DNA of 64,000 nucleotides from Paracoccaceae bacterium (lineage in GTDB: Bacteria > Pseudomonadota > Alphaproteobacteria > Rhodobacterales > Rhodobacteraceae), in NCBI GenBank assembly GCA_033344815.1, contig JAWPMR010000001.1, forward strand, positions 2,590,136-2,654,135, given 5' to 3'. Below the pieces are notes generated by a model, which saw nothing but the letters and a program-made list of their open reading frames with translations, did not search any database and had not been told where the DNA came from. The translations under genes were made by a program, and so were the position numbers. Below are positions 42,967-63,595 of this stretch, piece after piece (the stretch's first letter is position 1; each line of letters begins with the position of its first letter).

Positions 42967-43275
42967 GTGGCCTGCTCATTCTGCGATGTGTTGCCAACAA
43001 AATCGTTCGTCCCTGCCGGGGAGCACCACGCTCACGGACAAACCCTCTCTGGCATGCCTTGTAATAGGGCTGTTCATGAGTGCATGAAAGGGTTAATCGC
43101 GCAACAGAGCGTTTGCCGGACACTGATACCAGCAAAGACATACAAGCGCACAGGATATCGGCAGAACGGCATTCTTGAATGCAGATTGCATCAAGTTCGC
43201 TTGCGCGTCACTGGGTTAACACTGTAAATCAACTGCGAATGGCGTCTTACGTCTCGACGAACAGGTGACATACCG
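42967..43275. promoter_or_regulatory. Divergent promoter region of the exopolysaccharide genes
   Basis: 309 bases between the BY-kinase and the first sulfotransferase gene. GGGTTAACACT (43213-43223) is shared exactly with the RTX upstream region. GGGTTAATCGCG near 43090 is a related half-site. It probably drives both directions. Confidence 0.45.
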
Positions 43276-44115
43276 ATGATGCTCCCGAACTACTTTTATG
43301 GCGGCCCACCCAAGGCGGGTTCTTCGTGGATTTACAGCTTGCTGAGCGCTCATCCCGAGGTTTTCGTGCCGGAAGGGAAATACGTTCAGTTCTTTACGGA
43401 TTTTTATGATCGTGGCATTGATTGGTATGCGCAAAACTATGCCGATGCCCAAGCTGGCCAAACCGCACGCTGTGATTTGACAACAGACTATCTGTTTGTG
43501 CCTGAAGCTGCGGAACGGCTGGCGCAGCTTATCCCGGACGCGCGGATTTTCTTTTCGCTGCGCAACCCCGCAGAACGCGACTGGTCGGCCTATCAACATC
43601 TGTTGCGCACCGGTCAGGCGCACGGTCCGCTTGAAAAGGAAGCGGATAGCGCACATCGGCTTTTATCCACATGCAGCGCATATTCAGATGCAATTGAGCG
43701 CGCCTGGCGTCTTTTTGGCAAGGAAAATACCCATATCCTCTGGTTTGACGACATTCGTGCGGAACCTCAGGCGGCGGCGAACTCGCTCTTTGAGTTCTTG
43801 CGTGTTTCACAGCGTGACATATCCGAAGCCGACGAGGGGGCAAAGAATGTGGCACGTGCCGCACGCAATACGCATCTGAACGGGATGCTCAAACAAGGTG
43901 CCATCGCTTTGCGCGCCGCAGGATTGAGCAACGTGCTTGGCAAACTCAAAGCGAACCCGCTGGTCGACAAGGTTCTTTTCAGCGCCGACCGCGTGCCAAA
44001 ACTGCGTGATACGCCAGAGGCATGGGATTTCCTATCCGACCGTCATGCTGCAGAACTTGACCGGCTGGAATCGCTTCTGGACCGTGATCTTTCCGCGTGG
44101 CGGGCGCGCCCGTGA
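43276..44115 (+). CDS. Sulfotransferase
   Basis: 279 residues. The PAPS-binding loop GGPPKAGSSWIYSLLSAHPEV at the N-terminus (5'-phosphosulfate loop) and FSLRNPAERDWSAYQHL (3'-phosphate binding, RNPxxRxxS) mark a heparan-sulfate-type sulfotransferase. Likely sulfates the exopolysaccharide, or possibly another local product. The next gene starts inside its stop (GTGA). Confidence 0.88.
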   Translation: MMLPNYFYGGPPKAGSSWIYSLLSAHPEVFVPEGKYVQFFTDFYDRGIDWYAQNYADAQAGQTARCDLTTDYLFVPEAAERLAQLIPDARIFFSLRNPAERDWSAYQHLLRTGQAHGPLEKEADSAHRLLSTCSAYSDAIERAWRLFGKENTHILWFDDIRAEPQAAANSLFEFLRVSQRDISEADEGAKNVARAARNTHLNGMLKQGAIALRAAGLSNVLGKLKANPLVDKVLFSADRVPKLRDTPEAWDFLSDRHAAELDRLESLLDRDLSAWRARP

Positions 44116-45383
44116 CACACGCCGTGCAGACGGTCAGCGCAACAGACGCCGCCGGGGAAACAAGTTGGCGGATCTATGTTTTGGCCATCATGCTCAGCTT
44201 TTTTGTCGTTGTTGAGCCTGCACCCACCGATCTGGTTTTCATAATCGCCCTTGGCGTCTTTTGTTTTTCACGGCCTGTCAAAACAGCTTTCCTCAGCGGA
44301 GCAGCTCTGATCGGGGTATTCCTTTACCTTGTATTTTCGGTCTTATCGCTCGTTTTTGTGCAATATGTTCCGATATTTGCGGTGCGTGCCGTTGCGATTG
44401 AATTCTACATGATCGCGCTGTTCGTCATGACCGCATATTTCATGAAAACTCGGGGTGACCAGGCTTTCGCCACTGTATTGGCAGCGCTGACAATTGGAGG
44501 CGTGCTCGCCTCTTTTGTAGCCATAGCTGCACTGCTCGACCTCATCCCCAACAGCGATATCCTGTTTCGCGGCGATGGCGCGCGTTACCGGGTCAAAGCC
44601 ACATTCAAGGACCCCAACGTATTTGGCCCCTTTATCGTGCCAAGCCTGTTGTTCGTCACGTGGGTGGTCGTCGAATCTGCGCGTTTCCGCTTGATTGCGC
44701 TCGGGGCTATGGGCCTGTTGCTCATCTCTCTGCTGTCTACCTATTCGCGTGGCGCCTGGGTTCACGCGTTTATCTCACTGTCTTTCTTCAGCCTCGCGCT
44801 GCTCATTTATCGGCCAACTGCGCGTCCAACGTTGACTGCCATCGTCTGGGTCATCATCTTGATTTGCGGGACAGTTCTGTTTTTCCTCGATCAGATCACC
44901 GCGCGGCTGACCGACTCTTTTCTGGCGCAGCGCCTTTCGCTGCAAAGCTATGATACATCGCGGTTTGGCTATGTCGCTGACGCGGCGCGACAAATCTGGG
45001 AACACCCGCTTGGGATCGGCCCTTTTCAAGCGCGCTACGTCTATGGGTATTTGCCGCATAATACCTTTGTGGCTTTCGCGATGCACAACGGTATCTTTGC
45101 GTGTCTCGGATTGATCCTAATCTATGGGTCCGCATCAATCCGCTGTATGGCAAAAATCATTGCGCAACGTCCTGGATGGACAAAATACGCACTGGTTTTC
45201 TCGATTCTTCTGGGGCTTCTTGTTTTGATGCAGGTTGTGGGCGCAATTCACTGGCGCCACCTCTATCTGGTTTGTGGGATGGCTTTTGGCACCTATACAA
45301 CGGATCGCCTGCTGCCAGATCACATCGGCTGGTCAAAACGTAAACGGGCCCGCGCGCGCAAGAACTGGCAGCCCGCTCAATGA
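44112..45383 (+). CDS. O-antigen ligase/polymerase-like membrane protein
   Basis: 423 residues from GTG 44112, overlapping the previous stop. About 11-12 membrane segments with a large periplasmic loop, and the O-antigen-ligase Wzy_C signature near the middle (FKDPNVFGPFIVPSLLF, STYSRGAWVHAF). Probably the polymerase (Wzy) of the exopolysaccharide repeat unit, or a ligase. Confidence 0.85.
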   Translation: MTHAVQTVSATDAAGETSWRIYVLAIMLSFFVVVEPAPTDLVFIIALGVFCFSRPVKTAFLSGAALIGVFLYLVFSVLSLVFVQYVPIFAVRAVAIEFYMIALFVMTAYFMKTRGDQAFATVLAALTIGGVLASFVAIAALLDLIPNSDILFRGDGARYRVKATFKDPNVFGPFIVPSLLFVTWVVVESARFRLIALGAMGLLLISLLSTYSRGAWVHAFISLSFFSLALLIYRPTARPTLTAIVWVIILICGTVLFFLDQITARLTDSFLAQRLSLQSYDTSRFGYVADAARQIWEHPLGIGPFQARYVYGYLPHNTFVAFAMHNGIFACLGLILIYGSASIRCMAKIIAQRPGWTKYALVFSILLGLLVLMQVVGAIHWRHLYLVCGMAFGTYTTDRLLPDHIGWSKRKRARARKNWQPAQ

Positions 45384-45405
45384 CCCTGGTTAGGAACTGC
45401 CTGAA

Positions 45406-46713
45406 ATGAAACGCCTTTTGCTTGGCAGCGTCTTGTCTGCCGGCCTCAAAGTGGTCAGCGCAGGACTGACCTTCCTTATGTTCATGTTTCTCGCGCGCGT
45501 GCTGGGCGCCGTAGAATACGGTCTTTTTGCATCCATGTTTGCGCTTGGCACAATTGGTGCGATCACCTCTTTGTTTGGACAACACACGCTCAGCATCAAA
45601 ACTCTGTCTGCCTTGAGTGACGGACCGGAGGCCGCGGCCGACCGACGCTATGCCATGCGCCAAAGTTACCGGGTGGCTCTGTCTGGTGTCGTGGTGGTTG
45701 TAGCGGTCCTTTTAGGTGCCGGATTGATCGCGGGTTGGCTTGGGACCGACGTCGACATGCGCTACGTCTTTGGAGCCTGTGCGCTGGTTTTGCCTTTTGC
45801 GTTGGCAGAACTTGTGTCGCATCAGTATCGCGCTTTCGGAGCGATTTTCTGGGCGCTCGCCCCACGTGACGTGATTTGGCGCGGAGCAATCGTACTGGCC
45901 TGTCTGGCGGCGGCAAGCATACCATTCTTCTTTACCGATGCGCTGACTGCCATGGCCGCCATATCGGCGACCTTGATGGCAATTGTCGCGATACAGGCGA
46001 TCTCCATGATTGCCATCCATCGAGACAGATTTGCGGCGCCCGCAGGGTCCCATTCAACGATCACCATGCCTTGGAAAGTTTCAGCCTGGATGTGGTTGGC
46101 CTCGCTCGGCACCATGGGCGCGAGTCTGAACTTGTCTGCGGCGGCCCTTTTCTTGCCACCCGATCAAATCGGTGCCTATTTTGCCGCCCAAAAGACATCT
46201 CAGCTTTTGCAACTCCCCATCATGGCGATCAACATCGCCGCGACCCCCGTGTTTGCGCGGTTGCACAGCCAAAACGACATCGATGGTCTGCGTAACGTCG
46301 GCCGCAAATTGGCGATGCTCATTGCAGCGCCTCTCGCGCTCGGAGCGGCAGTGATCATCTTTTTCGCACCGCAACTCTTGGCGCTGTTTGATCCTGCGTT
46401 TGCGTCGGCGGCATTGGCTCTGACGCTTCTGGCGGGCAGCTATCTGCTGATCGGATTAGGCGGACCGACACGACAACTCATGCTAATGAGCAACGGGGAA
46501 CAGCAGGTCGTGCGTCTGACCTTGATTTCCGAAATCGCAGGTCTGGCGCTGATTCCCATTCTGGTGCCAATGTTCGGAATATTGGGCGCGGCAATTGCCG
46601 CCTGTGTGGCGCGGGTGTTGTTCACGGTTATGACGGTGTTTTGGTGTCGCAGAAACCTAGGTGTGGATACATCTGTTTTGTCGCTTTTGCCTGGCGTTTC
46701 GATGTCAAGATAA
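45406..46713 (+). CDS. Wzx-like polysaccharide flippase
   Basis: 435 residues, about 12-14 membrane segments. N-terminus KRLLLGSVLSAGLKVVSAGLTFLMFMFLARVLGAVEYGLFA is typical of the PST/Wzx family (lipid-linked oligosaccharide flippase); a polysaccharide-biosynthesis C-terminal region follows. Third gene of the sulfotransferase-polymerase-flippase run. Confidence 0.9.
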   Translation: MKRLLLGSVLSAGLKVVSAGLTFLMFMFLARVLGAVEYGLFASMFALGTIGAITSLFGQHTLSIKTLSALSDGPEAAADRRYAMRQSYRVALSGVVVVVAVLLGAGLIAGWLGTDVDMRYVFGACALVLPFALAELVSHQYRAFGAIFWALAPRDVIWRGAIVLACLAAASIPFFFTDALTAMAAISATLMAIVAIQAISMIAIHRDRFAAPAGSHSTITMPWKVSAWMWLASLGTMGASLNLSAAALFLPPDQIGAYFAAQKTSQLLQLPIMAINIAATPVFARLHSQNDIDGLRNVGRKLAMLIAAPLALGAAVIIFFAPQLLALFDPAFASAALALTLLAGSYLLIGLGGPTRQLMLMSNGEQQVVRLTLISEIAGLALIPILVPMFGILGAAIAACVARVLFTVMTVFWCRRNLGVDTSVLSLLPGVSMSR

Positions 46714-46719
46714 GGCGTT

Positions 46720-47694
46720 TCAGCGCATCGAGTACCCATAGCGGCCTGCGACCGGACCACAGATCATGGCGGCAAGTTTGCGATCCATGCGAGTAACGGC
46801 GTCGCTCCACGAAGTGTCAGGCTTCAAACGGACCTCGCCCAGATCAAACCGGGAAGGGTTACCGCTGATGGAATGTTGCGCATGCACGATTGCGGCGCGA
46901 CCATCACCCGCCAGCGTGTCCTCTGGCGCTGGTTCGAAAAGCGCGCCGGCCCCGGATAGGAGTGCAGCGTGCCAATTGTCTGCAAAATCCTCGTAACGCA
47001 CCTGAAAATAGCGATCCGGCGCAAGTTGCTCGAAACGTTCACAACGCGAATTCACGACGGCCCATTGCAACAGCGACCGGATCGAGGAATAGCGCGGGAA
47101 CAGCTGATCATCAGAGCTGTCGCCGCGTTGCTTGGTCTTTTTCCACGAATAGAGAACTGCGCGCGGATCGCGCACCAGATGCAAAAACGCGACATCAAAA
47201 GGACGATCAGGATGCAACAGGTTGAGCGCGTAAAACGGGCTTTTTGAGGCATCTACCAGAACGCGGCTGTGGCTCTTCTCGAAAGCGGCTGAATAGAGCT
47301 CCATCAGCAGATCGAGATCGGCATGATTACGCTCAAAATAGGCGGCCCGTGACCGTGCATTGTGCAGGGCCGGGATCTGACTGCGCCGTGCGCCGCTGCC
47401 AATGAATTTTGTCAGAGCACGCGCGCGCTCTGGGTTCACATCGCCCAAACGCCCCGAACCCAGTTCAATACCAGGCCAGAAGTCACATTCGGAAAAGGGC
47501 TCTCCGCAACCGCAAATGCCGTTTTCCAATACCCCACGATCCCACAAATAGCGCACTTCGCCGAGTGACGCACTGCCAGGCATGGAACCCAGAATATTGG
47601 CAAGTATCGAACTGCCGCTACGACCCCAGCCCAATATATACACCAAAAGTGGACGTGGCGATTGTTTGAAGGCAAGAGAGGCGGTCGTGACCAT
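46720..47694 (-). CDS. Second sulfotransferase
   Basis: 324 residues from ATG 47694, which has GGAG five bases upstream; a TTG six codons earlier is less likely. PAPS loop YILGWGRSGSSILANILGSMPG, CGCGEPFSECDFW, and HLVRDPRAVLYSWKKTK as the 3'-phosphate site. Convergent with the flippase gene (6 bases between stops) and divergent from the export gene. Acceptor unknown. Confidence 0.88.
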   Translation of the reverse strand: MVTTASLAFKQSPRPLLVYILGWGRSGSSILANILGSMPGSASLGEVRYLWDRGVLENGICGCGEPFSECDFWPGIELGSGRLGDVNPERARALTKFIGSGARRSQIPALHNARSRAAYFERNHADLDLLMELYSAAFEKSHSRVLVDASKSPFYALNLLHPDRPFDVAFLHLVRDPRAVLYSWKKTKQRGDSSDDQLFPRYSSIRSLLQWAVVNSRCERFEQLAPDRYFQVRYEDFADNWHAALLSGAGALFEPAPEDTLAGDGRAAIVHAQHSISGNPSRFDLGEVRLKPDTSWSDAVTRMDRKLAAMICGPVAGRYGYSMR

Positions 47695-47986
47695 GGGCGC
47701 TCCAAGTGACAACCGGAGAGTTTTGGCGGGCGGAATTCGCGATCCATTCAGGATCCCTTGAGGTCCGAGCGCCCTGTCCGGCGAATTACCCGATAGCTGT
47801 GCTGGAGGTCGTGCACCGGGTCAAGCCCTTCTCCAGAATTCAACGGCAGTATTTGACCGGTTGCCGCCAAATCGAGCGTATTATGATACAAAGCGGGAGT
47901 GACCTATTTCGACGGGCGGCTGTCTCTGGACAAAACTCGTGAAACCGGGTCAGTGTCTGCGCACGAAGCAAGAGGAAAATTTACGT

Positions 47987-49240
47987 ATGGCGATCGGGTG
48001 TTTTGCAAATTTCCAAATAAGGTTTGCGCGAGGTTTTCGGCAAATGCTTGGGTCGATTATGACTCTCGCATTCATTGCCACCTCCGGGCATGCTCTGGCA
48101 GAGCCTTACCGGCTATCGCCGGGTGACCGTATTTTGGTGCAGATCATTGTTTTGAACAATCAATCCTACGTCGGAACCGTCGATACGGCTGGTGAAATTC
48201 GGCTGCCTTATCTAGGAACCCACAAAGCCGTAAACAAAACACTCGACGAACTGGCACAAGAGATCTCTCTTTCAGTTGCGGGCCGTCAAATACAGTCCGT
48301 CCGCGATGGGATCACTTCGGTAATCGTACTGGATGAGGAAGATATTTTCCTGGATATCGAAACCTACCGACCAATCACCGTCGTCGGAGCCGTCGCAGCG
48401 CCGGGCCGCGTTCCCTTTGAACCTGGTTTGAACGCACGAGCCGCCATCGGCTCCGCTGGGGGATCGGCCGTCGCCGGACAAACCGAGCGTGTGGACCAAC
48501 TTGCGAATTTTCGAACCCGACAGGCGGAGTTGCGTGAAACAGAAGCCTGGCTGGCCTCCGAACTCTGGCGAATCGAAATATTGCTCTCTGGTGCGCCAAG
48601 CGACTCACCCATTGATGGCGAGTTCCAGATCATCGCTGATCGCCTTGATAGCGGGGACATTGAAGTGTTGAGGCAACTCGTTGAGGGCGCGCGTACTGGA
48701 TTGGAACGCGAACGCGAAGACAATACCGCGCGCATTGCACTCTCCGAAAAGCGGGTCCTGTTCCTCGAAACTGCGCTTGAGCAGTTCGTCACCGCTTCTG
48801 AGATCGAAGAAGAGCGGTTACAGGACATTCTTCAGCTATCGGACCGTGGTCTTGTCACCGCAAATGCGCTCGACAATGCCCGCGAAGGTGCGTTGAATGC
48901 ATCTTCCCGGCTTCTGACGACGCAGGCTGATCTGGCGGCCGCTGAGCGGGAACTGCAGTCGCTGATCATAGAAAAACAAAGCTTGGACGAAGACTTCGTA
49001 CAGACACTTAGGGACGAGAGAGCACGATTCGAGCGAGATTATGATGAAGCCCGGGCACGGCTGAGCAGTCTCAACAGGGAACTGGCCCTTGGCGCGGTGA
49101 GCAACACCGAAGACGTGTCGATGGACATTCGGATCATCCTGCACCGCCAGAACGGAGACGAAGAGACCAGCACTGAAGTAGCGCCAAGCGAACTTCTCAA
49201 ACCCGGTGATGTTCTCGAGTTGCTGTTAAGTTACAACTGA
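47987..49240 (+). CDS. Wza/ExoF-like polysaccharide export protein
   Basis: 417 residues from ATG 47987 (GAGGAAAA site upstream; the frame is open 16 codons further). Sec signal near 25-38 (MTLAFIATSGHALA). Poly_export domain YRLSPGDRILVQIIVLNNQSYVGTVDTAGEIRLPYLG, an SLBB-like segment ITVVGAVAAPGRVPFEPGLNARAAIGSAGG, then a long coiled coil (about 160-370) as in ExoF of rhizobia, and a short C-terminal beta part. Outer-membrane/periplasmic partner of the BY-kinase co-polymerase. Confidence 0.9.
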   Translation: MAIGCFANFQIRFARGFRQMLGSIMTLAFIATSGHALAEPYRLSPGDRILVQIIVLNNQSYVGTVDTAGEIRLPYLGTHKAVNKTLDELAQEISLSVAGRQIQSVRDGITSVIVLDEEDIFLDIETYRPITVVGAVAAPGRVPFEPGLNARAAIGSAGGSAVAGQTERVDQLANFRTRQAELRETEAWLASELWRIEILLSGAPSDSPIDGEFQIIADRLDSGDIEVLRQLVEGARTGLEREREDNTARIALSEKRVLFLETALEQFVTASEIEEERLQDILQLSDRGLVTANALDNAREGALNASSRLLTTQADLAAAERELQSLIIEKQSLDEDFVQTLRDERARFERDYDEARARLSSLNRELALGAVSNTEDVSMDIRIILHRQNGDEETSTEVAPSELLKPGDVLELLLSYN

Positions 49241-51576: not shown

Positions 51577-52776
51577 ATGGATGCCAGCCTCAATACCGCG
51601 GAAATGCGCCTGCATATAGCATTTGCCAAGGTCCGTCTTTGTGACAAAGAAAGAAAGGCAGCCGAAGAATTCGCCCGTCAAATCACGCATTGGGACCGGT
51701 TCATCGAAACAGCGGCGCGAAATTTCAGTCTGCCCAACATCAGAATGCACCTGGCTCAGATGGACGAGAAATGTGTGCCACCGCAGGTCCACAAACAGTT
51801 GAATGAGGCCGCGAATGCGTCCGCCATACGCAATATGATGCTCATTTCAGCGCAACGTCAGTTCAAGGAAAAATGTGTCGATCCGCTCGGACAGGAAGCG
51901 GTATTTTTCAAGGGTATCACTCTGGTGGGGCAATACTATCCGGATCTGGGACTAAGGCCCTGCCGCGATATTGATGTGCTGGTCAGGCCAGACGCGCTGC
52001 GCGGGATTGTCTTACAAGCCATCGATTGTGGATATGAATTTGTCGTACCCGGTCAATCTGATCACCCCTTGGTTGAGCCCTCTGAAATTGACGCAGCACT
52101 GCATTATCGTAATGATGCCAGCCTTTTGTCACCTGAGGGCATGGCCATTGATCTGCAGGTCAAGCTGGACAAATATTCCGGGATTTTTGCGGATGTGGAC
52201 GTGATGGCGCAAGCTGTGCCCGTCACTCTGGGAGGCAAAGAGTTTCTGACGATGCCACCCGTGTTTCTTTTCAATTATATCTGTCACCACCACGCCCGGC
52301 ACGTATGGTCCCGCCTGCATTGGCTCAGCGATCTGGACGCGATGATCACATCTCCCGGTTTTGACGTCGATGCCACTATCGACATGGCCGGTCAACTGAA
52401 CCAGCGCGGCACTGTCGAAGCCAGCTTTGAAATGCAGCGTCTGATGTCGCCTTGTGCTGACTGGGAACCGGCTCCTGACACCTGGCGGGGCCTGAAGTTT
52501 CTTGAATTGAGTCTGCGCAATCTTTCCGGTGATCTGGATCTGGAAAAGAAGATTGGGTTCAGCATGAAGGGCGGTGAATTCATGTTTGACTGGCAGGCTG
52601 GCTCCAGCCTGATCCGCCGTGCACGCTGGCAGCATTGGCGCAAGATCTTGCAACCTACCATCCGCCAATATACGCGCTTTCCTCTCCCGCGCGGCCTGCG
52701 GTGGCTCTATGTTTTTCCGCGCTTCGTGCATTTGATCGCCCGTACCCGAGACCGGGCCAGTAAAGAAGCCGACTGA
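51577..52776 (+). CDS. Uncharacterised nucleotidyltransferase-fold protein
   Basis: 399 residues. Matches the pattern of the NTP_transf_5 family: AVFFKGITLVGQYYPDLGLRPCRDIDVLVRP (nucleotidyltransferase core with the D-x-D metal pair in RDIDVLV) and HYRNDASLLSPEGMAIDLQVKLDKYSG, then a helical C-terminal half (FLFNYICHHHARHVWSRLHWLSDLDAM). The family is often encoded next to lasso-peptide and polysaccharide genes (as I recall). It could transfer a nucleotide to the lasso peptide or to another product. The glycosyltransferase follows at 85 bases. Confidence 0.82.
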   Translation: MDASLNTAEMRLHIAFAKVRLCDKERKAAEEFARQITHWDRFIETAARNFSLPNIRMHLAQMDEKCVPPQVHKQLNEAANASAIRNMMLISAQRQFKEKCVDPLGQEAVFFKGITLVGQYYPDLGLRPCRDIDVLVRPDALRGIVLQAIDCGYEFVVPGQSDHPLVEPSEIDAALHYRNDASLLSPEGMAIDLQVKLDKYSGIFADVDVMAQAVPVTLGGKEFLTMPPVFLFNYICHHHARHVWSRLHWLSDLDAMITSPGFDVDATIDMAGQLNQRGTVEASFEMQRLMSPCADWEPAPDTWRGLKFLELSLRNLSGDLDLEKKIGFSMKGGEFMFDWQAGSSLIRRARWQHWRKILQPTIRQYTRFPLPRGLRWLYVFPRFVHLIARTRDRASKEAD

Positions 52777-52860
52777 CCAGAGTTTTCCACCCTTGCGTCT
52801 GTACAATGGAGCACCAATCGAGATGTGCGGCATGATCAAACTCTTATGAAGGACTCCGCG

Positions 52861-53979
52861 ATGCTGGATCCCCTAAAAATTGCGCTTGTCCTTGAAACAT
52901 CGGGCGGCGGATCCGGGCGTCATGTTCTTGATCTGGCGCAGGGGTTGGCGGAACAAGGCCATGCGGTCACGGTGATCTGGTCGCCAGTGCGCGCACAGGA
53001 AGATTTTCGCTTGCAGCTCCTGAGTATGAAGCAGGTAGACAACCTACCTATTGCGATGCACAGACCTGTTGGCTTGCATGATTTCAAAAGCCTGCAAGCC
53101 CTTGCCACGACGCTGCGCGCGCACGGACCATTTGACGTCCTACATGGTCACAGCTCAAAGGCAGGGGCATTGATCCGCTTGCTGCCCCGCTCCATTCCGG
53201 GATCACGGATTTACACACCCCACGCATTTCGCACCATGGACCCGACGATGGGCCGGATGGGCGCGCTGGTCTATGGGACCATTGAACGTGTGCTTGCCCT
53301 GCGCGCAGATCACATCATCCCGGTCAGTTCTGCGGAAAAAGCGCATGGTATTGAGCTTGGAATCAAGGCGCAAAAGATGACGACTGTCGTGAATGGCGCA
53401 ACCTTGCCGCCGGGGGCCGACCGCGTGGCGGCACGCGCCTTCATGGGCTTGGCAGCGGATGATTTCGCCGTGGGTTTCATTGGGCGTCTGGACCCTCAAA
53501 AAGCGCCGCTGCGCTTTGTAGAAGCCATTTTGCTAGCAGCCCGGGATGCGCCAAATCTGCGTGGAATGGTCATTGGCGATGGCAACCTGCGGGACGCGGC
53601 TGAGGCGAAAAATACGGGCGAAGTGGTCCGGTTTCTGGGATGGCAGGACGGCCCCGCTCTGTTCCCCGGGCTCGACGTCTTTTGCATGACCAGCCACTTT
53701 GAGGCGATGCCCTATACCCTGATCGAAGCGCTGCATGCGGGTGTCCCGATTGTAACCACTGCAGTCGGTGGCGTGCAGGAAACAGTACAGGAAGGCGAAA
53801 ACGGCTTTGTATTACCAACCGATTGCGATCCATCGGCCATTGCCGAGCGATTGACAACCCTGGCGGCAAACCCGGACCTGCGCCAGGCGTTCAGCGCACG
53901 TGCGCAACTCCTTGCACGCGAACGGACGATCGAGAATATGGTCAGAGAAACGTTGGCCGTATATGAAGCGTCACGCTGA
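52861..53979 (+). CDS. GT4-family glycosyltransferase
   Basis: 372 residues from ATG 52861, preceded by AAGGA; in-frame starts at 52846 and 52825 exist. GT-B fold: ETSGGGSGRHVLDLAQGLAEQGHAV near the N-terminus, HGHSSKAGALIRL, FIGRLDPQKAPLRFVEAI, and the nucleotide-sugar-binding E-x7-E region FEAMPYTLIEALHAGVPIVTTAVGG. Probably adds a sugar to the exopolysaccharide repeat unit. Confidence 0.92.
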   Translation: MLDPLKIALVLETSGGGSGRHVLDLAQGLAEQGHAVTVIWSPVRAQEDFRLQLLSMKQVDNLPIAMHRPVGLHDFKSLQALATTLRAHGPFDVLHGHSSKAGALIRLLPRSIPGSRIYTPHAFRTMDPTMGRMGALVYGTIERVLALRADHIIPVSSAEKAHGIELGIKAQKMTTVVNGATLPPGADRVAARAFMGLAADDFAVGFIGRLDPQKAPLRFVEAILLAARDAPNLRGMVIGDGNLRDAAEAKNTGEVVRFLGWQDGPALFPGLDVFCMTSHFEAMPYTLIEALHAGVPIVTTAVGGVQETVQEGENGFVLPTDCDPSAIAERLTTLAANPDLRQAFSARAQLLARERTIENMVRETLAVYEASR

Positions 53980-56657: not shown

Positions 56658-56730
56658 GTTCACTCTTTTTTTCAGGAAGGTTGACGTTTTCGGCGACCAG
56701 TTATGAACAAGATATGCTTTTGAAACCGCC

Positions 56731-56883: not shown

Positions 56884-57816
56884 TTATTCCGCAGTATGAA
56901 ACACCTGTTCGATCTTTTGAGCAACTGCATCAAGCTGGGACAAATCCGCGGGAATCATCAGATCATAGACAGGTGCGTTGGCCACAACGGCTCCACACCG
57001 TTTAAGATGCCGCCCCAGATGGTCCCGGCCCAGACGCGTTTCGCCGTAGCGTGCCATGAATGTGTAACGCATCACCATCTGAAGCGCTTCGTGCGCGGGG
57101 CGCGGCACGACCGATGGTGCCATTACGTCTTCGCTGCGGCGCAAGACGAAAAGTGCGCCCAAGGGAACCGGTTCTTCGGCAAGCGGTGTCGGCATGCGTT
57201 TTTGCACCTTTGTCACGGAAGGATGGATCAGACGGTCACTTTCGTCCGCGTCCAACGACAAAGCTTCGACCGAATCTGGCCAGAGTTTCATACTTGAAAA
57301 GCCGGGCCATATAACCGGCGCAGGCACTTTTTGCAGTGTCCCATCCACTGCCACCAGATCATCGGTTATCGGTACGTGCCCGCGTGCAAGCAGAGCGGCA
57401 TTGGTTGTGGATTTTCCAGCACCTTTGTCGCCCAGGAACAGGGCCGCGCGATTGTTCACCGACACCGCACTGGCGTGTAGGCAAAGCACCCCGCGCCGCT
57501 CCAGAACAAGCGAGATCACCAGACCCAGAAACGCCTGCGACACCAAATGGTTGGACACGTCATCCTGCGGCTCGATCAGAACGGTACTTGGGTCTTCGAT
57601 AATGAAGGTGCCAACCGCTTTCCAATGAAAAAACTGACGGTCTGGTTGAATGTCAAAATACGGGTCGATCGCTGGCGGCGTTGTGGGCCGGATGCCCTGC
57701 GTGCGAACAACCCGTAGCAGATCTGAATCCGGATTAGGGACGATAGGGTCCAAGACTTCAAATTCGAAATCAGATGCCAGCGTCAGTCCGAATACCGAAT
57801 AATAATGCAGTGTCAT
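56884..57816 (-). CDS. HPr-kinase-like tailoring kinase of the lasso cluster
   Basis: 310 residues from ATG 57816, overlapping the cyclase stop (TGATGA); 12 further codons are open upstream. HprK-type core: LCLHASAVSVNNRAALFLGDKGAGKST with the His before the P-loop and Walker A GDKGAGKST, then ITDDLVAVDG (metal/catalytic Asp pair) and WPGFSSMKLWPDS. It lacks the N-terminal domain of true HPr kinases. In paeninodin-type clusters such kinases phosphorylate the C-terminal Ser of the precursor (family knowledge). The precursor here ends in Ser. Confidence 0.9.
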   Translation of the reverse strand: MTLHYYSVFGLTLASDFEFEVLDPIVPNPDSDLLRVVRTQGIRPTTPPAIDPYFDIQPDRQFFHWKAVGTFIIEDPSTVLIEPQDDVSNHLVSQAFLGLVISLVLERRGVLCLHASAVSVNNRAALFLGDKGAGKSTTNAALLARGHVPITDDLVAVDGTLQKVPAPVIWPGFSSMKLWPDSVEALSLDADESDRLIHPSVTKVQKRMPTPLAEEPVPLGALFVLRRSEDVMAPSVVPRPAHEALQMVMRYTFMARYGETRLGRDHLGRHLKRCGAVVANAPVYDLMIPADLSQLDAVAQKIEQVFHTAE

Positions 57817-59705
57817 CAGATCAGCATCCCTTCGACTTGTGCGTCGCGCCAACGTTTCAATGCTTCAATCCAGTGGATCAGAACGGCCAATCGCCAAAGC
57901 GCACGAATTGCCGCCACATCCGTCACAGCGCCTGACACAACCCTTTCACGCAGATGATCAGCCGACGCGACATCTATGAAAGGCGCAAGGGTGACAAAAC
58001 AATTGGCATCGGCATCTTTGAAAAAAGCTATGACAGTATCCTTAAGTTCGTTGCCAAACTCTGCCTTATCTACGCGGAGCCGGATACCATCCGGCAAAAC
58101 ACCGAGCATTGCCTCACGCAAAACCCAACGGCTGCGACCGTCGCGCAGTTTTTGATCCGCCGGCAGCGAAAGACAAAGCGACGTAACACGCCGGTCCAAA
58201 AAGGGGTATCGCGGCAGAACTCCGGCGGCCGTGGCTGAACGATGCAAAACTTCGAAGGACTGAACAATCAACGGCGTTGTGAGCGATTCCAGATGCGTTA
58301 TCTGCGCGGCTTGCTGAAAATCCGATTCGGACTTGAGTATTGGATTGCGGGCATACCGTGTCCTTGCATCAACACTTGAACGTAAATCCGCCGCAATCAG
58401 AGAGTCCGCGTTCTCTGACCAGTTTGATACCAGCGAGCGTCGCGTCAGAACACGTGCGGCCTTCATTAATAGTCTGCGCAGTGGATGCCTGGGTCGCAAC
58501 CCGCCATATTGTGCAATGTGACCCGCAACCAGCGCAATCAACGGGACGCCATGCACCCGCGCCGCGCCGCGGGCCTCGCGCAACAACGCGCTGAACCGCC
58601 GCGCGTGCGCCAACTCCACCAGACGCCCGTACCCGTGGGAAATTGCTTCATCGCCACCGTGGCCATCAATCAGCCCATTCAAGCCAAGCGCATGCGCTTC
58701 TGCGTAAATCTGTCTGCTTTTGGGCAAACCCGGCGCTAGGAAAAGATCCATCTGTTCCTCAACAACAGGTCCCAACGCATCAAGCGCCGTGCCCGCTGCT
58801 ATGGGAATCTTGTGCGGGACTGTCTTGAACGCCTTATTCGCGGCGTCAATGTAACGTGTTTCATCGTATGCTTTGTCCTGACCATACACAAACGACAACG
58901 TTTGTAAGTCCGTCGTCTCTGCGGCCGCCAGTCCAACCAGTGACGTGGAGTCCAAACCTCCGCTCAACATGGCGCCCACTGGCCCGTTGACTTTCATGCT
59001 TGCGACTGTCGCGTTCTTTAGAGCTGTGCGCAGTTCTGCCGGGGCATCTGGCCCGGAATAGGGTTTTATTAGAGTTTCGAATTTCCAATACCGTTGCGCA
59101 CTCACGCCCTCCGGTCCCGGCACAAGTTGATGTGCGGGCGGCAGACGAGACACATCTTTGAAAGCGGTGCGATCAACGTCAATATCGTCGCCGTGTATGA
59201 AATCGGCAACCCGGACAGGATCCGCGATGATCTCTCTGCCTGACAGATGCAAACACGCGCGCAGATCGGACGCACATGTCAGCGCGCCGTCAGATAGCGT
59301 GTGGTAAAAAGGATAAAGGCCAAAATGATCCCGGTAGGCTTCAAAAGTCCCGGTTTTGCGGTGGATAAAGACAACCGAGAAAGACCCAGCTATGTCGCGC
59401 ACAAACTCGGAACCCAGCGTTGCGCGCAGGTGCAAAAAAAATTCCAGATCGGATTTCCCATCCAACGCGCTCAGTCCAAGTCGTTGCTGCTCGCTAGCGC
59501 GATCTTCCAGAAACGCGAGCCCGATTGCCATCCATTCAGCCGTCTCACACAAAGACGCCACACCTGAAACCGCCACATCAACGCCAGCGACGGGCTGCGA
59601 TACATTCCAACCCTGATCCCGCATCCGTGACAGGCGTATTGGCTCGATCAATGGGGCTTTCTCGGTTCCGGCAAGCGGTATCCGCACAGAAAAAGAATGC
59701 ATCAT
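57816..59705 (-). CDS. Lasso peptide cyclase (asparagine-synthase-like, C protein)
   Basis: 629 residues. N-terminal glutaminase-like domain without the catalytic Cys (starts MMHSFSV), with YRDHFGLYPFYHTLSDGALTCASDLRACL near 124-152. Synthetase domain with the ATP PP-loop AMLSGGLDSTSLVG at 245-258 and conserved LNGLIDGHGGDEAISHGY and PRYPFLDRRVTSLCLSLP. It adenylates the ring Asp side chain and closes the isopeptide bond to Gly1. Start overlaps the B2 stop (ATGATGA). It could be mistaken for asparagine synthetase B, but the neighbours and missing Cys argue for a cyclase. Confidence 0.93.
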   Translation of the reverse strand: MMHSFSVRIPLAGTEKAPLIEPIRLSRMRDQGWNVSQPVAGVDVAVSGVASLCETAEWMAIGLAFLEDRASEQQRLGLSALDGKSDLEFFLHLRATLGSEFVRDIAGSFSVVFIHRKTGTFEAYRDHFGLYPFYHTLSDGALTCASDLRACLHLSGREIIADPVRVADFIHGDDIDVDRTAFKDVSRLPPAHQLVPGPEGVSAQRYWKFETLIKPYSGPDAPAELRTALKNATVASMKVNGPVGAMLSGGLDSTSLVGLAAAETTDLQTLSFVYGQDKAYDETRYIDAANKAFKTVPHKIPIAAGTALDALGPVVEEQMDLFLAPGLPKSRQIYAEAHALGLNGLIDGHGGDEAISHGYGRLVELAHARRFSALLREARGAARVHGVPLIALVAGHIAQYGGLRPRHPLRRLLMKAARVLTRRSLVSNWSENADSLIAADLRSSVDARTRYARNPILKSESDFQQAAQITHLESLTTPLIVQSFEVLHRSATAAGVLPRYPFLDRRVTSLCLSLPADQKLRDGRSRWVLREAMLGVLPDGIRLRVDKAEFGNELKDTVIAFFKDADANCFVTLAPFIDVASADHLRERVVSGAVTDVAAIRALWRLAVLIHWIEALKRWRDAQVEGMLI

Positions 59706-60127
59706 GAGGAGGACTGAACCGGCGTGGGTAAATCAAGGATTTTGGCAAAATCCACCAACGTGCCCTCATTTCCTTCCAACACGACCTGGTCGTGCCAGCT
59801 CAACCACGCGTGCGCTTTAAGAGCGCCGCCTTCGTCCTTTTTCAACCCCATCGTGATGGTGGACGGAATACCTTTCCAAGACAGGATGGCCTGGCAAGAA
59901 ATGGTCTGGGTCAGGCAACTCGCATCAGGCACGAAGCGCGCGATATGTGCGACCGCATGCGTTATTCGGGCAACGGTTGCGCGCCTCTCAAACTGTGGGT
60001 CAACTGGGCAGGGCCGCACCAGAATCGCGCGAATCCGCTGATACTTGGTCGTCCAAAGCCCAATACGCACGACCAAGATAACCAGCGCGCTGATGGTGTA
60101 TATCACTGCCCAGCGCATGGCACGCAT
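59702..60127 (-). CDS. Lasso leader peptidase (B2, transglutaminase-like)
   Basis: 141 residues. A hydrophobic N-terminus (about 7-25) and a papain/transglutaminase-like core: Cys71 in VPDASCLTQTISCQAILSW, His106 in ALKAHAWLSWHD and a nearby Asp113, the triad arrangement of B2 proteins, with IPSTITMGLKKDEGG between. It cuts the leader from the core. Starts 4 bases after the B1 stop. Confidence 0.93.
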   Translation of the reverse strand: MRAMRWAVIYTISALVILVVRIGLWTTKYQRIRAILVRPCPVDPQFERRATVARITHAVAHIARFVPDASCLTQTISCQAILSWKGIPSTITMGLKKDEGGALKAHAWLSWHDQVVLEGNEGTLVDFAKILDLPTPVQSSS

Positions 60128-60130
60128 AGG

Positions 60131-60418
60131 TTAACCGACCCCGGCCGGTGTGATGCCAATCACGTTTGCTTCCATCATCTGGCTCAGCAAAACTTCTATG
60201 TCGCCACGGCACTGATCTTCTGAGACTTCGAACTTTTCGGTCACGACACTAACGAGGTCATCCAGGTTTTTAGGCTCAGCCAAGGCCAACCACAAAGCGG
60301 ATGCAGTGGCGTTCATAGTAAAATACGTATTCGTTTGTAGATGGAGCAATGCGCGATCTCCGCCGATGTCACAGTCAACAACATCTGGTTGCGCGCTATA
60401 AAATTGTTCAGATGACAT
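60131..60418 (-). CDS. PqqD-like leader-recognition protein (B1)
   Basis: 95 residues from ATG 60418; a GTG two codons earlier is possible. PqqD/RRE fold: DVVDCDIGGDRALLHLQTNTYFTMNATASALWLALAEPKNLDDLVSVV, then a helical part with a DIEVLLSQMMEANVI end. It binds the leader peptide (the YxxPxL part) and presents the precursor to B2. Follows the terminator behind the precursor gene. Confidence 0.92.
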   Translation of the reverse strand: MSSEQFYSAQPDVVDCDIGGDRALLHLQTNTYFTMNATASALWLALAEPKNLDDLVSVVTEKFEVSEDQCRGDIEVLLSQMMEANVIGITPAGVG

Positions 60419-60544
60419 AAACACTAATCCAATTTCGGCTCTTTGATCGTTAAGCCCAATAGTTACCTACACACTGCCGATCTGAAAATACACCACCTTA
60501 ACTGCAAAAACTCAGGCGGCCATTCTGTTCAGTTGCTTCAAGAC

Positions 60545-60575
60545 AAAACCGGGGTCCGGCATGACCGGACCCCGG
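60545..60575 (-). terminator. Terminator between lasso precursor and processing genes
   Basis: On the minus strand CCGGGGTCCGG / CCGGACCCCGG, a perfect 11-bp GC-rich stem with a 5-base loop, followed by TTTTGTCTT. It lies 47 bases after the precursor stop and about 130 before B1. Partial read-through would give much more precursor mRNA than enzyme mRNA. Confidence 0.88.
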
Positions 60576-60621
60576 AAATCTTTTCACGTTGCGAACAACC
60601 CAAGGGTTGTCGCAATCGCAA

Positions 60622-60762
60622 TTAGGACAGAGTTACATCAGCGAAAGGTGTGCCGACTGGGAAGGCGGCGTCCAATGATGTACCTGTGGAACCACCTTTG
60701 GTCACAGCTTCGACTTTGCCGTGGGACCGAAGAACTGGTGCTTCATAAATAGCTTTAGTCAT
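60622..60762 (-). CDS. Lasso peptide precursor (A)
   Basis: 46 codons, ATG at 60762 with AAGGAG five bases upstream. Leader of 22 residues: Tyr6, Pro9, Leu11, Gly15 and Thr21 fit Y-x2-P-x-L-x3-G-x5-T, with Thr at the -2 position and Lys at -1. Predicted core of 24 residues (bases 60696-60625) starts GGSTGTSLD: Gly1 and Asp9 would form a 9-residue ring. The loop/tail has bulky residues (Phe12, Phe18, with Pro13 and Pro17) that could act as plugs, and it ends VTLS. The terminal Ser is the expected site for the kinase encoded downstream. First gene after its own promoter region and directly followed by a terminator. No Cys, so not a class I or III peptide. Confidence 0.94.
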   Translation of the reverse strand: MTKAIYEAPVLRSHGKVEAVTKGGSTGTSLDAAFPVGTPFADVTLS

Positions 60763-60916
60763 GACTTCTCCTTTTGCGTTAACCGTAATAGTTAAAACGT
60801 GTTAACCATATTGGCTTTTGGCGGGTTATCTCAAGGACTTTTCATGCCTTTTCGGCGATTTTTTGTTCAAAAATGGCATTTTGCCTGCTTTTTAGTCCAT
60901 TGACTTTCGTTAATAG
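60763..60916 (-). promoter_or_regulatory. Putative promoter/operator of the lasso precursor
   Basis: 154 bases between the exporter stop and the precursor. On the minus strand GGTTAAC occurs twice (60807-60801 and 60784-60778) with another TTAA between (60795-60792). A TTGAGA with 17 bases to ATATGG upstream is a possible -35/-10 pair. The repeats could bind a regulator; CtrA half-sites are similar (TTAAC) but the spacing is not the classical seven. Confidence 0.45.
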
Positions 60917-62740
60917 TTAAGATCGGTAGCTTCTGCCCTGGCGTTCGAACATTTCCGCGTAGCGCCCTCCCTGGCCGATGAGCGCCTCATGAGTCCCTTC
61001 TTCTACTATTCTGCCGCCATCCAGCACATAGGTATAATCCGCCTGTCTTATGGTGGACAAGCGGTGGCTGATGACCAGCGCGCCGCGTCCCTCAAGCTTG
61101 TCGCGGAACCCGTCAAACAACTCGGCTTCTGCATTTGGATCAATCGCGCTGGTGGGTTCATCCAGTATGATAAACTTTGAGTCGGGGAAAACTGCCCGTG
61201 ACAGAGCGATTTTTTGCCACTGGCCTCCACTCAGCTCAACGCCACCGTCGAACATGCGCGACAAAACGGTTTCGTAACCGTTCGGCAGCGCTTCGAGCAC
61301 ATCATGCGCACCTGTCAGTTTCGAGACGTTTTCCAGCCGTGCGTCATCGCTTTCCTGGCCCAGATCCGACAAACGCATATTGTCTCGCCCGGAATAGGCA
61401 AACTGCGCGAAATCCTGAAATATCACGCTGAACTGCCGACGATAGGCGGTCGGATCAAATGAACGGACGTCGACCCCGTCATAGGTTACCGAGCCCTCCT
61501 GGGGGTCGTAGAGTCGACACAACAGTTTGATCAAAGTAGTTTTTCCGGACCCGTTGCCCCCAACCAATGCTGTAAACTGTCCCGGTTTGATGTTCAGTGA
61601 AACGTCTCGCAAGGCGGGGCGTTCTGCAGTCGGATATGAAAACGTCACATGATCTAAGACCACACCCTGTTTTGTACCAGACGGCAGGGTTTCAGCCTTG
61701 GCGTCAGGTTTCATGACCGGTTCCAGATCCAGAAAGGCGAACAGTTGGTTCAGGAACAACTGGTCATCATAGAGCTTTGACAGGCTCGTCACGAAATCCC
61801 GTCCAGCCGTCTCCGCACGGACCAAGAGCAAGACCACCATGATCAGGTCGGATAGCTCCGCTTGGCCAGTGCTGAAGCGATACAAGATAAACGCAGCCGA
61901 TGCGAGAACGACGAGCGTACCCACGATAGAAACCAGACTTTCCGCGATGGATTTGCGCCGTTCAATGGTGAGATAGTCTTTGCGAACAGCCTTGCGGATA
62001 TTCAAATATTGGGCGCGCAGATACGCTCCGATATCCCAGAGGCGGATCTCTTTTGCGAAAGGTTGTGATGTCATCACATAGTCCGCGTAGGATGCATGAC
62101 GTTCCTTTTGCACAAGCTGACGCTGCAAGTGAAACCGCTCCCTGGTGAAACGGACTTGTACAACCAACATCATTGCAACCGCGATCAAACTTATCGGCAG
62201 CAGACGCCACTCAACGAAAAACAGCACGATAGCGATACCAAAAAGCATCATACCGCCCCGGAAAACGTTCAATGCGTTAGCAATCACCTGAGCAGGTCGC
62301 TGTGCGCCGGCCTGTCGTGCGCGTTCCAGACTGTCATAGTAAAGGGAACTATCATAGAAACTCAGATCCGCAGCAACGGCCCGTTCTTGTATGGCGCGGT
62401 TCACGTAGTCACTGACCACAAATCCCTGGGCAGCACGATAATAGTTTGCCACCGAATGCATGATACGTCCGCCAAGGAAAAGGCCGAGGACAACCACAAC
62501 AGACCATAAAACACGACCCAGATCGACGGAACCGTCAGCGCTTGCGGCCTGTGCAATATCTTCTACAGCCAGCTTGACCGCAAAAAGCGCACCAAGTGTC
62601 AGAACGATTTCGAGCACTGAAGCCGCGAGCACGAAAACGCCGAGCTTCTTGTTGCTGAACTTCAACAGCTCGATCACTTTGCGCCACAAAACAAAAGAAC
62701 GCGATAGCTTGCTGGTGAATGAGGAAGTTTTGGATAACAT
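60917..62740 (-). CDS. Lasso peptide ABC exporter (D, half-transporter)
   Basis: 607 residues from ATG 62740; a TTG 26 codons earlier is less likely. Six-helix membrane domain (about 25-310) then nucleotide-binding domain: Walker A GGNGSGKTTLIKLL, Q-loop region VIFQDFAQF, signature VELSGGQWQKIALSRA, Walker B FIILDEPTSAIDP, H-loop ISHRLST. No peptidase domain. Exports the mature lasso peptide and may give immunity. Upstream of the precursor on the same strand. Confidence 0.92.
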   Translation of the reverse strand: MLSKTSSFTSKLSRSFVLWRKVIELLKFSNKKLGVFVLAASVLEIVLTLGALFAVKLAVEDIAQAASADGSVDLGRVLWSVVVVLGLFLGGRIMHSVANYYRAAQGFVVSDYVNRAIQERAVAADLSFYDSSLYYDSLERARQAGAQRPAQVIANALNVFRGGMMLFGIAIVLFFVEWRLLPISLIAVAMMLVVQVRFTRERFHLQRQLVQKERHASYADYVMTSQPFAKEIRLWDIGAYLRAQYLNIRKAVRKDYLTIERRKSIAESLVSIVGTLVVLASAAFILYRFSTGQAELSDLIMVVLLLVRAETAGRDFVTSLSKLYDDQLFLNQLFAFLDLEPVMKPDAKAETLPSGTKQGVVLDHVTFSYPTAERPALRDVSLNIKPGQFTALVGGNGSGKTTLIKLLCRLYDPQEGSVTYDGVDVRSFDPTAYRRQFSVIFQDFAQFAYSGRDNMRLSDLGQESDDARLENVSKLTGAHDVLEALPNGYETVLSRMFDGGVELSGGQWQKIALSRAVFPDSKFIILDEPTSAIDPNAEAELFDGFRDKLEGRGALVISHRLSTIRQADYTYVLDGGRIVEEGTHEALIGQGGRYAEMFERQGRSYRS

Positions 62741-62884: not shown

Positions 62885-63562
62885 TTACCGACCAGTTGCG
62901 CCCACGATTGACAGACCCGTCATCGCAATCAGGCGAATATCGGTAAACAGAGACACATCATTCGAGTAGTCGACGTCGAATTGCACCCGCTCCGAGTAGG
63001 ATACGTCATTGCGACCGGATACTTGCCAAAGACCTGTGATCCCAGGCGTCATAGATAGATAAACAGGCCGATGAATCCCGTACTTGTGTAGTTCTACGCG
63101 CACAATTGGCCTAGGCCCCACAAAACTCATCTCGCCGCGGAAGACATTCCAAATTTGCGGTAGCTCATCCAGGCTTGTTTTGCGCATAAAACGGCCCAAA
63201 CGAGTGATTCGCGGGTCATTTGCGAGTTTGTGATCTGTTGCCCACTCCGCTGCAGCCTCCGGATTCTCCTCCAGATGGGCGTGTAGCTTGGATTCCGCGT
63301 CCACAACCATGGTGCGGAGTTTCCAGCACCGAAACACTTTGCCATCCCGACCAACACGCCGATGCCCAAAAAATCCGCTTCCACCATCGCGGGTCGTCGC
63401 GAGCCATAAAATACCGATAATCGGCAGTAGCAAAGGGGTGATTAAGGCAGCCAGAAGCAGGTCAAAAAGCCGTTTTCCCGCGCGGCGATAGAGCGCAACA
63501 CCACCGTCTAGTTTGGGGAAGGATTTGGAATTTTCCGTTTCTTCTAAGTGAAACACAGCCAT
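62885..63562 (-). CDS. Undecaprenyl-phosphate sugar-1-phosphate transferase (ExoY/WbaP-type)
   Basis: 225 residues from ATG 63562, with TAGGAG 9 bases upstream. One N-terminal membrane segment ([24 protein letters not shown]), then the catalytic sugar-transferase domain: [51 protein letters not shown] and [16 protein letters not shown]. Starts exopolysaccharide repeat assembly by priming the lipid carrier. Confidence 0.94.
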
Positions 63563-63595
63563 AGTCACAAACTCCTAAAGATGATTCTCGCGCGC

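What the first reader, a model, noticed from the sequence alone, without database searches (positions are those of the whole stretch)
56884..62740. Complete, apparently undescribed lasso-peptide cluster D-A-B1-B2-C-K in a roseobacter-like chromosome
On one strand lie an ABC exporter, a 46-codon precursor, PqqD-like B1, Cys/His protease B2, asparagine-synthase-like cyclase and an HPr-kinase-like enzyme, with ATGA-type overlaps between B2, C and K. The precursor has the canonical leader motif (Y6, P9, L11, G15, T21) and a core Gly1...Asp9 that predicts a 9-membered macrolactam. The core sequence is not one I recognise from any named lasso peptide.
Basis: partly seen in the sequence, partly recalled or inferred. 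Interest (0 to 1): 0.95.

Follow-up and report, generated by a model that had tools for sequence, protein, structure and literature searches.

The report
Phosphorylated lasso peptide in polysaccharide locus
This marine Roseobacter carries a complete gene cluster predicted to make a knotted "lasso" peptide, likely phosphorylated on its last residue, and the cluster and nearly all of its fetched relatives sit next to genes for surface polysaccharide, so the peptide would likely act at the cell surface rather than being just another antibiotic.

Summary
In detail: D-A-B1-B2-C-K on the minus strand, 62740-56884, with a 46-aa precursor (core GGSTGTSLDAAFPVGTPFADVTLS) under purifying selection (pN/pS 0.02-0.29).
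(1) The core belongs to a family: in 55 distinct 24-residue cores from related clusters, D9, T22 and S24 are invariant. C-terminal Ser persists in 60 of 61 precursors, also where the core is not lasso-like and in a strain whose genome gave no cyclase hit. K has the lasso-kinase motif with exact spacing and an HPrK/PEPCK-like predicted fold. Prediction: Gly1-Asp9 ring, phosphate on Ser24 (lasso 2249.085 Da; with phosphate 2329.052).
(2) The cluster is embedded in a surface-polysaccharide locus. So are 87 of 88 related loci; a sugar transferase lies in 80 of 88 against 0 of 60 other B2 loci, though 67 of the 88 share one Mesorhizobium-type layout.
(3) In the genus, window-type B2, a nucleotidyltransferase and the locus's polymerase/ligase occur in the same 5 of 19 genomes.
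C-terminally phosphorylated lasso peptides are published, and so is co-location with capsule loci in Bacilli; my searches found no such co-location report for Alphaproteobacteria. New member of a known kind, with a testable role.

The parts
60917..62740 (-). D: ABC exporter (ORF listed from TTG 62818; start uncertain, the ATG at 62740 is codon 27)
   Evidence: ABC_tran 107.5 bits; MsbA-like, below cut-off. Matches to relatives begin at residue 26-33 in six loci but at 3 and 13 in L126 and L128. D found in 85 of 89 clade loci, Walker A in all 85
60622..60762 (-). A: 46-codon lasso precursor; leader codons 1-22 at 60762-60697, core codons 23-46 at 60696-60625
   Evidence: NF033521 lasso_leader_L3 27.1 bits, cut-off 19; 13 homologues; pN/pS 0.02-0.29
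60549..60575 (-). Hairpin terminator between A and B1: 12-pair stem, 10 G-C pairs, then TTTTGTCTTG; likely lets A be made in excess of the enzymes
   Evidence: RNA fold of 60530-60590 -32.5 kcal/mol, z -5.2, 0 of 200 shuffles as good. Conservation in relatives was not tested
60131..60424 (-). B1: PqqD-like RiPP recognition element
   Evidence: PF05402 59.5 bits; PDB relatives 9x90 lasso PqqD chaperone (E 4.5e-8) and TbiB1 5v1u (E 1.6e-7)
59702..60127 (-). B2: Cys/His leader peptidase
   Evidence: NF033537 68.8 bits, cut-off 33; PF13471 79.9 bits; Cys and His motifs in 89 of 89 clade B2
57816..59705 (-). C: asparagine-synthetase-like macrolactam cyclase
   Evidence: PF00733 147 bits; SGGxDS ATP site in 88 of 88 clade C proteins
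56884..57816 (-). K: HPrK-like precursor kinase (ORF opens at TTG 57852; close relatives begin at the ATG at 57816)
   Evidence: motif H126-G141-G144-G146-K147-S148-D164-D165, invariant in 26 aligned; AlphaFold2 pLDDT 93.2, pTM 0.90; HPrK/PEPCK fold; profile hit to HPrK chains E 5e-9
62885..63568 (-). Sugar transferase (WbaP-like priming glycosyltransferase), directly upstream of D
   Evidence: PF02397 195.2 bits; next to the cluster in all 5 cluster-bearing genomes of the genus sample
51577..52776 (+). N: PF14907 nucleotidyltransferase, candidate tailoring enzyme for the phosphate (inferred)
   Evidence: NTP_transf_5 122.1 bits; found in exactly the 5 of 19 genus genomes that carry the cluster
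52825..53979 (+). Family-4 glycosyltransferase paired with N
   Evidence: 70-73% identical beside the cluster in L125-L128
44097..45383 (+). Wzy/WaaL-type polymerase or ligase of the polysaccharide locus
   Evidence: PF04932 34 bits, cut-off 31.7; same 5 of 19 genomes
40894..49240 (.). Rest of the polysaccharide locus: Wzz 40894-42966 (-), sulfotransferases 43276-44115 (+) and 46720-47712 (-), MatE flippase 45406-46713 (+), Wza export 47939-49240 (+)
   Evidence: Pfam

Best explanation
The cluster D-A-B1-B2-C-K is predicted to make and export a 24-residue class II lasso peptide (Gly1-Asp9 ring) that K likely phosphorylates on the C-terminal Ser24, and because it lies inside a surface-polysaccharide locus the product would likely act in or on that polysaccharide. 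Inferred steps in order: B1 binds the YxxPxL leader; K phosphorylates Ser24 of the linear precursor with B1's help; B2 cuts after Lys22 (Thr at -2); C activates Asp9 with ATP and closes the ring round the tail; D exports the product. N and the GT4, conserved with the cluster within the genus, may decorate the phosphate with sugar. Shown here: gene content, sequence conservation, family motifs, K's predicted fold, and gene linkage. Not shown: any product, its topology, the phosphate, or any link of the peptide to the polysaccharide itself.
For: Parts and families. Ser: 60 of 61 distinct precursors chosen by leader motif alone end in Ser; D9, T22, S24 each 55 of 55 in the 24-residue cores, while the ring Ser3 used by BsfK is Ser in only 21 of 55. 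Natural experiment: L018 keeps the A leader, B1, B2, K and the C-terminal Ser but has no C in the locus and a core without Gly1 or Asp9; a search of that whole genome (G408, 99% complete) with the window C finds nothing at E 0.001, while the same search finds C in both comparison genomes. Extra non-24-residue precursors in L020 and L021, one in each Gly/His/Lys/Trp-rich, also end in Ser. K motif with the spacing printed for BsfK (passages of PMC10368454) in 85 of 89 clade K, HPrK/PEPCK fold. Polysaccharide linkage: 87 of 88 clade loci carry at least one of five marker genes, against 4 of 60 other B2 loci; sugar transferase 80 of 88 against 0 of 60, Wza 80 of 88 against 0 of 60. Genus: B2, N and Wzy in the same 5 of 19 genomes. 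Order sample of 390 genomes: Wzy in 5, 4 of them among the 7 with clade K.
Against: I know of no observed product. 67 of the 88 loci are one Mesorhizobium-type arrangement, so counts are not independent events; among the other 21, the sugar transferase is in 13. Genus co-occurrence fits shared descent of one locus. One of the 5 Wzy genomes (G142) lacks the clade K, and in G295 the Wzy is a distant one (31%) on another contig. N was found in only 6 of 88 clade loci (a search that missed a fused PF14907 domain in L088), so it is no fixed part. One precursor (L092) ends Ser-Asp. K scores below Pfam's cut-off for HPr kinase. Four of 89 clade K lack the exact motif spacing. The third member of the peptidase triad is not Asp at the expected place in 88 of 89 B2. 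In more distant kinase loci the terminal Ser is not general.
Confidence: 0.75

Rival explanations
1. An ordinary antibacterial lasso peptide whose cluster merely lodges in polysaccharide loci because such loci are variable islands.
For: Lasso peptides are often antibacterial (recalled); the plasmid copy in Sulfitobacter indolifex is flanked by transposases, so the cluster likely moves.
Against: Other B2 loci from the same genome samples show the sugar transferase in 0 of 60 cases; within the clade it occurs in all four combinations of side and strand relative to K (downstream same strand 71, upstream same 5, downstream opposite 3, upstream opposite 1), so the link is not one inherited layout; the core is near-invariant, above all in Mesorhizobium-type loci, unlike arms-race peptides.
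Confidence: 0.15
2. K phosphorylates a ring residue (core Ser3), as BsfK does, not the C-terminal Ser.
For: The window core has Ser at 3, as BsfA does; K carries the same motif.
Against: Position 3 is Ser in 21 of 55 and Ala or Gly in 29 of 55 24-residue cores, Ser24 in 55 of 55.
Confidence: 0.06
3. The mature product is a linear or merely branched phosphopeptide, not a threaded lasso.
For: L018 lacks C and the ring residues yet keeps A, B1, B2 and K; linear polyphosphorylated peptides with HPrK kinases exist beside lasso clusters in Bacilli (PMC13381572, section 6).
Against: The window keeps an intact C (SGGxDS in 88 of 88 clade C) and Gly1/Asp9.
Confidence: 0.07

Closest known systems
Paeninodin-type phosphorylated lasso peptides (Paenibacillus, PadeK/ThcoK)
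   Same: Split B1/B2, HPrK-like kinase, C-terminal Ser; Bacilli clusters also lie in capsular polysaccharide loci and NTP transferases are typical of them (PMC13381572, section 6 and passages; reviews PMC8498205, PMC9266682, passages)
   Different: Different phylum and, by the review passage, a different gene order in Proteobacteria; precursors share little but the C-terminal Ser; here the core length (24) and D9, T22, S24 are fixed in 55 of 61 precursors
SyanK cluster of Sphingobium yanoikuyae
   Same: Alphaproteobacterial lasso kinase acting on a C-terminal Ser (reviews)
   Different: SyanK/SyanA sequences were not at hand to compare; no polysaccharide link is mentioned in the passages I saw
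BsfK lasso kinase of Bradymonas sediminis
   Same: Same H-G-G-G-K-S-D-D motif and spacing
   Different: BsfK acts on ring Ser3 and BsfA ends in Asp; here Ser3 is not conserved and Ser24 is
Linear polyphosphorylated peptides (LPP)
   Same: HPrK-like kinase, RRE, NTP transferase, MsbA-like exporter, polysaccharide loci
   Different: LPP lack the cyclase, use an SpI peptidase and are phosphorylated on Ser3; the window has B2 and C. The cyclase-less L018 is an outward parallel
NCBIfam lasso_cyano (NF033528) and rhodolasso (NF033534)
   Same: Leader part aligns
   Different: Below both cut-offs: 20.9 against 33 and 15.9 against 30 bits

Membership tests
Lasso peptide biosynthetic cluster (split B) | Precursor with lasso leader motif | tested here: met
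   NF033521 27.1 bits, cut-off 19
Lasso peptide biosynthetic cluster (split B) | B1 recognition element and B2 peptidase | tested here: met
   PF05402 and NF033537/PF13471 over cut-off; Cys and His in 89 of 89. The Asp of the triad (place recalled from McjB) is not at His+12 in 88 of 89
Lasso peptide biosynthetic cluster (split B) | Asparagine-synthetase-like cyclase with ATP site | tested here: met
   PF00733 147 bits; SGGxDS 88 of 88
Lasso peptide biosynthetic cluster (split B) | Core residue 1 plus Asp/Glu at 7-9 | tested here: met
   Gly1 and Asp9 in the window; Asp9 in 55 of 55 24-residue cores, position 1 Gly in 52 of 55
Lasso peptide biosynthetic cluster (split B) | Threaded product | not testable with these tools
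   Needs expression and NMR or ion mobility
Phosphorylated (paeninodin-like) lasso peptides | HPrK-like kinase in the cluster with catalytic motif | tested here: met
   Motif; fold
Phosphorylated (paeninodin-like) lasso peptides | C-terminal Ser | tested here: met
   60 of 61 distinct clade precursors; 14 of 14 close sequences, window included
Phosphorylated (paeninodin-like) lasso peptides | Phosphate on that Ser | not testable with these tools
   Needs mass spectrometry
HPr kinase (Pfam PF07475) | Score over the gathering cut-off | tested here: not met
   26.1 against 33.3 bits; works like one by motif and fold, but is not filed as HPr kinase
Linear polyphosphorylated peptides | No macrolactam cyclase | tested here: not met
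   C is present
Linear polyphosphorylated peptides | SpI-type leader peptidase | not tested
   No such search was run; B2 is present
NCBIfam lasso_cyano / rhodolasso | Score over cut-off | tested here: not met
   20.9/33 and 15.9/30 bits

The most novel reading that the evidence does not exclude
The lasso peptide is a structural part of the polysaccharide: exported with it and joined, through a sugar-phosphate on Ser24 made by K, N and the glycosyltransferase, to chains handled by the locus's own Wzy/WaaL-type enzyme, giving a lasso-capped or lasso-anchored surface glycan across Alphaproteobacteria.
Probability: 0.08. Interest if true: 0.9.

Novelty: new member of a known kind. Interest (0 to 1): 0.52.

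Why it matters
The biological roles of paeninodins are stated to be unknown (PMC13381572 discussion passage: often co-located with capsule loci in Bacilli, a biofilm role untested). Here a second, distant phylum shows the same co-location, in 87 of 88 fetched loci of a family with a mostly fixed 24-residue core. The cyclase-less relative L018 also offers a natural test of what the kinase reads.

Tried and rejected
NCBIfam cyanobacterial and rhodolasso models as homes for the precursor: below cut-off. N (PF14907) as a fixed part of the cluster: it holds in the genus and in L018 (59%), weakly in L019 (29%), but was found in 6 of 88 clade loci and 7 of 60 other B2 loci (that search missed a fused PF14907 domain in L088), so it is offered only as a candidate. 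A general rule 'kinase means C-terminal Ser' for all B2 loci: rejected; among distant kinase loci some candidate precursors end in Ser (L129, L130, L140, L142, L153, L200, L202, L205, L212, L223) and others do not (L133, L134, L138, L157, L219, L220); these were picked by eye from a motif scan. Solved-structure search by sequence for B2 gave nothing useful. The VIA rows shown are PEPCK chains; HPrK rows appear in the Foldseek list, so which is closer is open. Wzz is no discriminating marker (6 of 88 against 4 of 60). First B2 motif count (47 of 89) used too narrow a pattern and was redone (89 of 89).

Rows dropped before counts: L128 and L135 as duplicates of L015 and L018; L152 (contig end, no K) left out of both groups; the window is not among the 88 but is among the 89. 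47 of 108 small ORFs lacking the leader motif were dropped by pattern; the 61 include the window and L152; the precursor of L148 was missed by the scan and is not in the 61 (it ends DLTFS). The K search kept the best 80 of 133 loci. Not every B2 hit was fetched in full (G418:C132 was not). Median locus length is 16.9 kb for the clade and 16.0 kb for the others; 1 clade and 4 other loci are under 10 kb. Marker queries came partly from clade loci; a search with the window's sugar transferase alone gave the same 80 clade loci and, outside the clade, only a weak hit at a contig end in L152.

Full report
What is there. On the minus strand, 62740 to 56884, lie an ABC exporter (D), a 46-codon precursor (A), a PqqD-like B1, a B2 peptidase, an asparagine-synthetase-like C and an HPrK-like K. 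The precursor passes NCBI's lasso leader model. B2 and C overlap as ATGA; C and K as TGATG if K starts at the ATG where its close relatives start. Between A and B1 stands a 12-pair hairpin followed by a T-rich run (z -5.2), which likely lets more precursor than enzyme be made (interpretation; its conservation was not tested).

A is a real gene. Comparing the window with four other precursors of the genus and one Marivita precursor, silent changes far outnumber amino-acid changes: pN/pS over the whole gene is 0.02-0.29 in the 15 pairs. Thirteen homologues were found among 5.8 billion proteins; all 14 aligned sequences share T21, G23, D31 and the C-terminal S46.

A family with a mostly fixed core. 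I collected related clusters through K in GTDB genomes (best 80 loci of 133), through B2 in 99 relatives, 390 genomes of the order and 385 of the class, and one annotated plasmid of Sulfitobacter indolifex. Profiles of each enzyme separate a clear clade (K profile score over 240; the best K outside it scores 177.8): 88 distinct loci besides the window, against 60 other B2 loci. Of 61 distinct clade precursors selected by leader motif only, 60 end in Ser; the exception (L092) ends Ser-Asp. Fifty-five have a 24-residue core in which D9, T22 and S24 are invariant and F12 and T16 are present in 54. Position 3, the site BsfK phosphorylates, is Ser in 21.

Polysaccharide context. The window from 41 to 49 kb holds Wzz, two sulfotransferases, a Wzy/WaaL-type enzyme, a MatE flippase and Wza; N and a GT4 lie at 51.6-54.0 kb, and a sugar transferase abuts D. 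The same holds elsewhere: of 88 clade loci, 87 carry at least one of WbaP, Wza, Wzy, Wzz or Wzx within the fetched stretch (usually about 8 kb each side of K or B2), against 4 of 60 other B2 loci (all four through Wzz); the one clade locus without is a 4.5-kb contig (L081). Sugar transferase: 80 of 88 against 0 of 60; Wza 80 of 88 against 0 of 60; Wzy 71 of 88 against 0 of 60; Wzz alone does not discriminate, 6 of 88 against 4 of 60. Sixty-seven of the 88 share one Mesorhizobium-type layout; among the other 21, 13 have the sugar transferase and 20 have some marker. The sugar transferase occurs in all four combinations of side and strand relative to K: 71, 5, 3 and 1 loci, so the linkage was probably made or kept several times (inference). 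Pfam scans of flanking ORFs in L040, L088, L090, L150, L151 and part of L091 show polysaccharide genes in each, beside some ORFs without a family.

Co-inheritance. In 19 genomes of the genus, window-type B2, N and Wzy occur in the same five (G000, G004, G010, G011, G013); G005 has a different B2 without K. PF02397 transferases occur in 18 of 19, so surface polysaccharide in general is not the difference. In 390 genomes of the order K matched 9 at E under 1e-20, 7 of them clade members; Wzy matched 5, 4 of which are clade members; the three with identity of 63% or more are all clade members, including the cyclase-less strain, the fourth (G295) is a distant match on another contig, and G142 lacks the clade K. 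The hypergeometric value of 2e-7 ignores relatedness.

Literature. Reviews (PMC8498205, PMC9266682, passages) describe PadeK, ThcoK and SyanK phosphorylating a C-terminal Ser, the last two several times over. PMC13381572 (section 6 whole, other passages) reports paeninodin-like clusters inside capsular polysaccharide loci of Bacilli and calls their roles unknown. For Alphaproteobacteria I found no such report in searches for lasso peptide with exopolysaccharide (71 papers, 25 listed, one opened), with Mesorhizobium (6 listed, none opened), with Roseobacter denitrificans (0), lassopeptide with Roseobacter (3 listed, two opened) and lasso peptide with capsular polysaccharide, kinase and Alphaproteobacteria (0); only open-licence papers are held. 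The 2016 genome paper of O3.65, the strain of L020, names an antiSMASH 'lassopeptide' cluster without detail (PMC5064897, passages), and one of Pseudoruegeria a lasso cluster (PMC9728324, passages).

Verdict. The observation and the lasso reading stand. It is a new member of the phosphorylated lasso peptides, not a new kind of system. What raises it above routine is the family-wide C-terminal Ser with a mostly fixed core, the cyclase-less relative, and the near-constant place in surface-polysaccharide loci, which makes the open question of function testable.

Noticed in passing
window 56394-56732 (-) and 54037-56451 (-): A spike base protein of the RCAP_Rcc01079 family (113.6 bits, cut-off 28) next to an 804-aa right-handed beta-helix protein, between the lasso cluster and the polysaccharide genes; it resembles the gene-transfer-agent head-spike pair GhsA/GhsB (names recalled). 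The spike base is conserved in L125-L128.
   Followed up: partly
L018 6882-8987: Lasso-type cluster without cyclase or exporter: leader, B1, B2 and K kept, core FYWSWTKIAPWCDPSYS; no cyclase hit in the whole genome; possibly a linear phosphopeptide.
   Followed up: partly
L020 and L021, upstream of B1: Extra precursors with the same kind of leader and terminal Ser but cores that are not 24-mers, one in each locus Gly/His/Lys/Trp-rich.
   Followed up: partly
L129-L163 and L194-L223: Distant B2 loci with an HPrK-like K (38 of 60 other loci), many also with B1 and an asparagine synthetase, and short candidate precursors with YxxPxL leaders and very different cores; possibly other RiPP types.
   Followed up: no
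window 63805-63999 (-): Open frame ending VPASGALLGFLMAAAVLRRLPMPGKKSGAA, like a PEP-CTERM-type sorting tail (recalled); no NCBIfam hit.
   Followed up: partly
window 59702-60127 (B2): The Asp expected 12 residues after the catalytic His (place recalled from McjB) is Glu here and Gly, Glu or Gln in 88 of 89 clade B2 proteins.
   Followed up: partly
window 50464-51318 (+): Fragment like an IS3 transposase (51 bits, cut-off 160) just upstream of N.
   Followed up: no
window 32698-35796 (+): 1032-aa protein with RTX calcium-binding repeats (217 bits).
   Followed up: no
L193 (NZ_CP084955.1 21198-39599): The same cluster on Sulfitobacter indolifex plasmid pDSM14862_d amid transposases and polysaccharide genes; its precursor (core TTKSGTTLDAGFSSGTPLSEVTLS) is not in PLSDB's gene table, which is incomplete.
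   Followed up: yes
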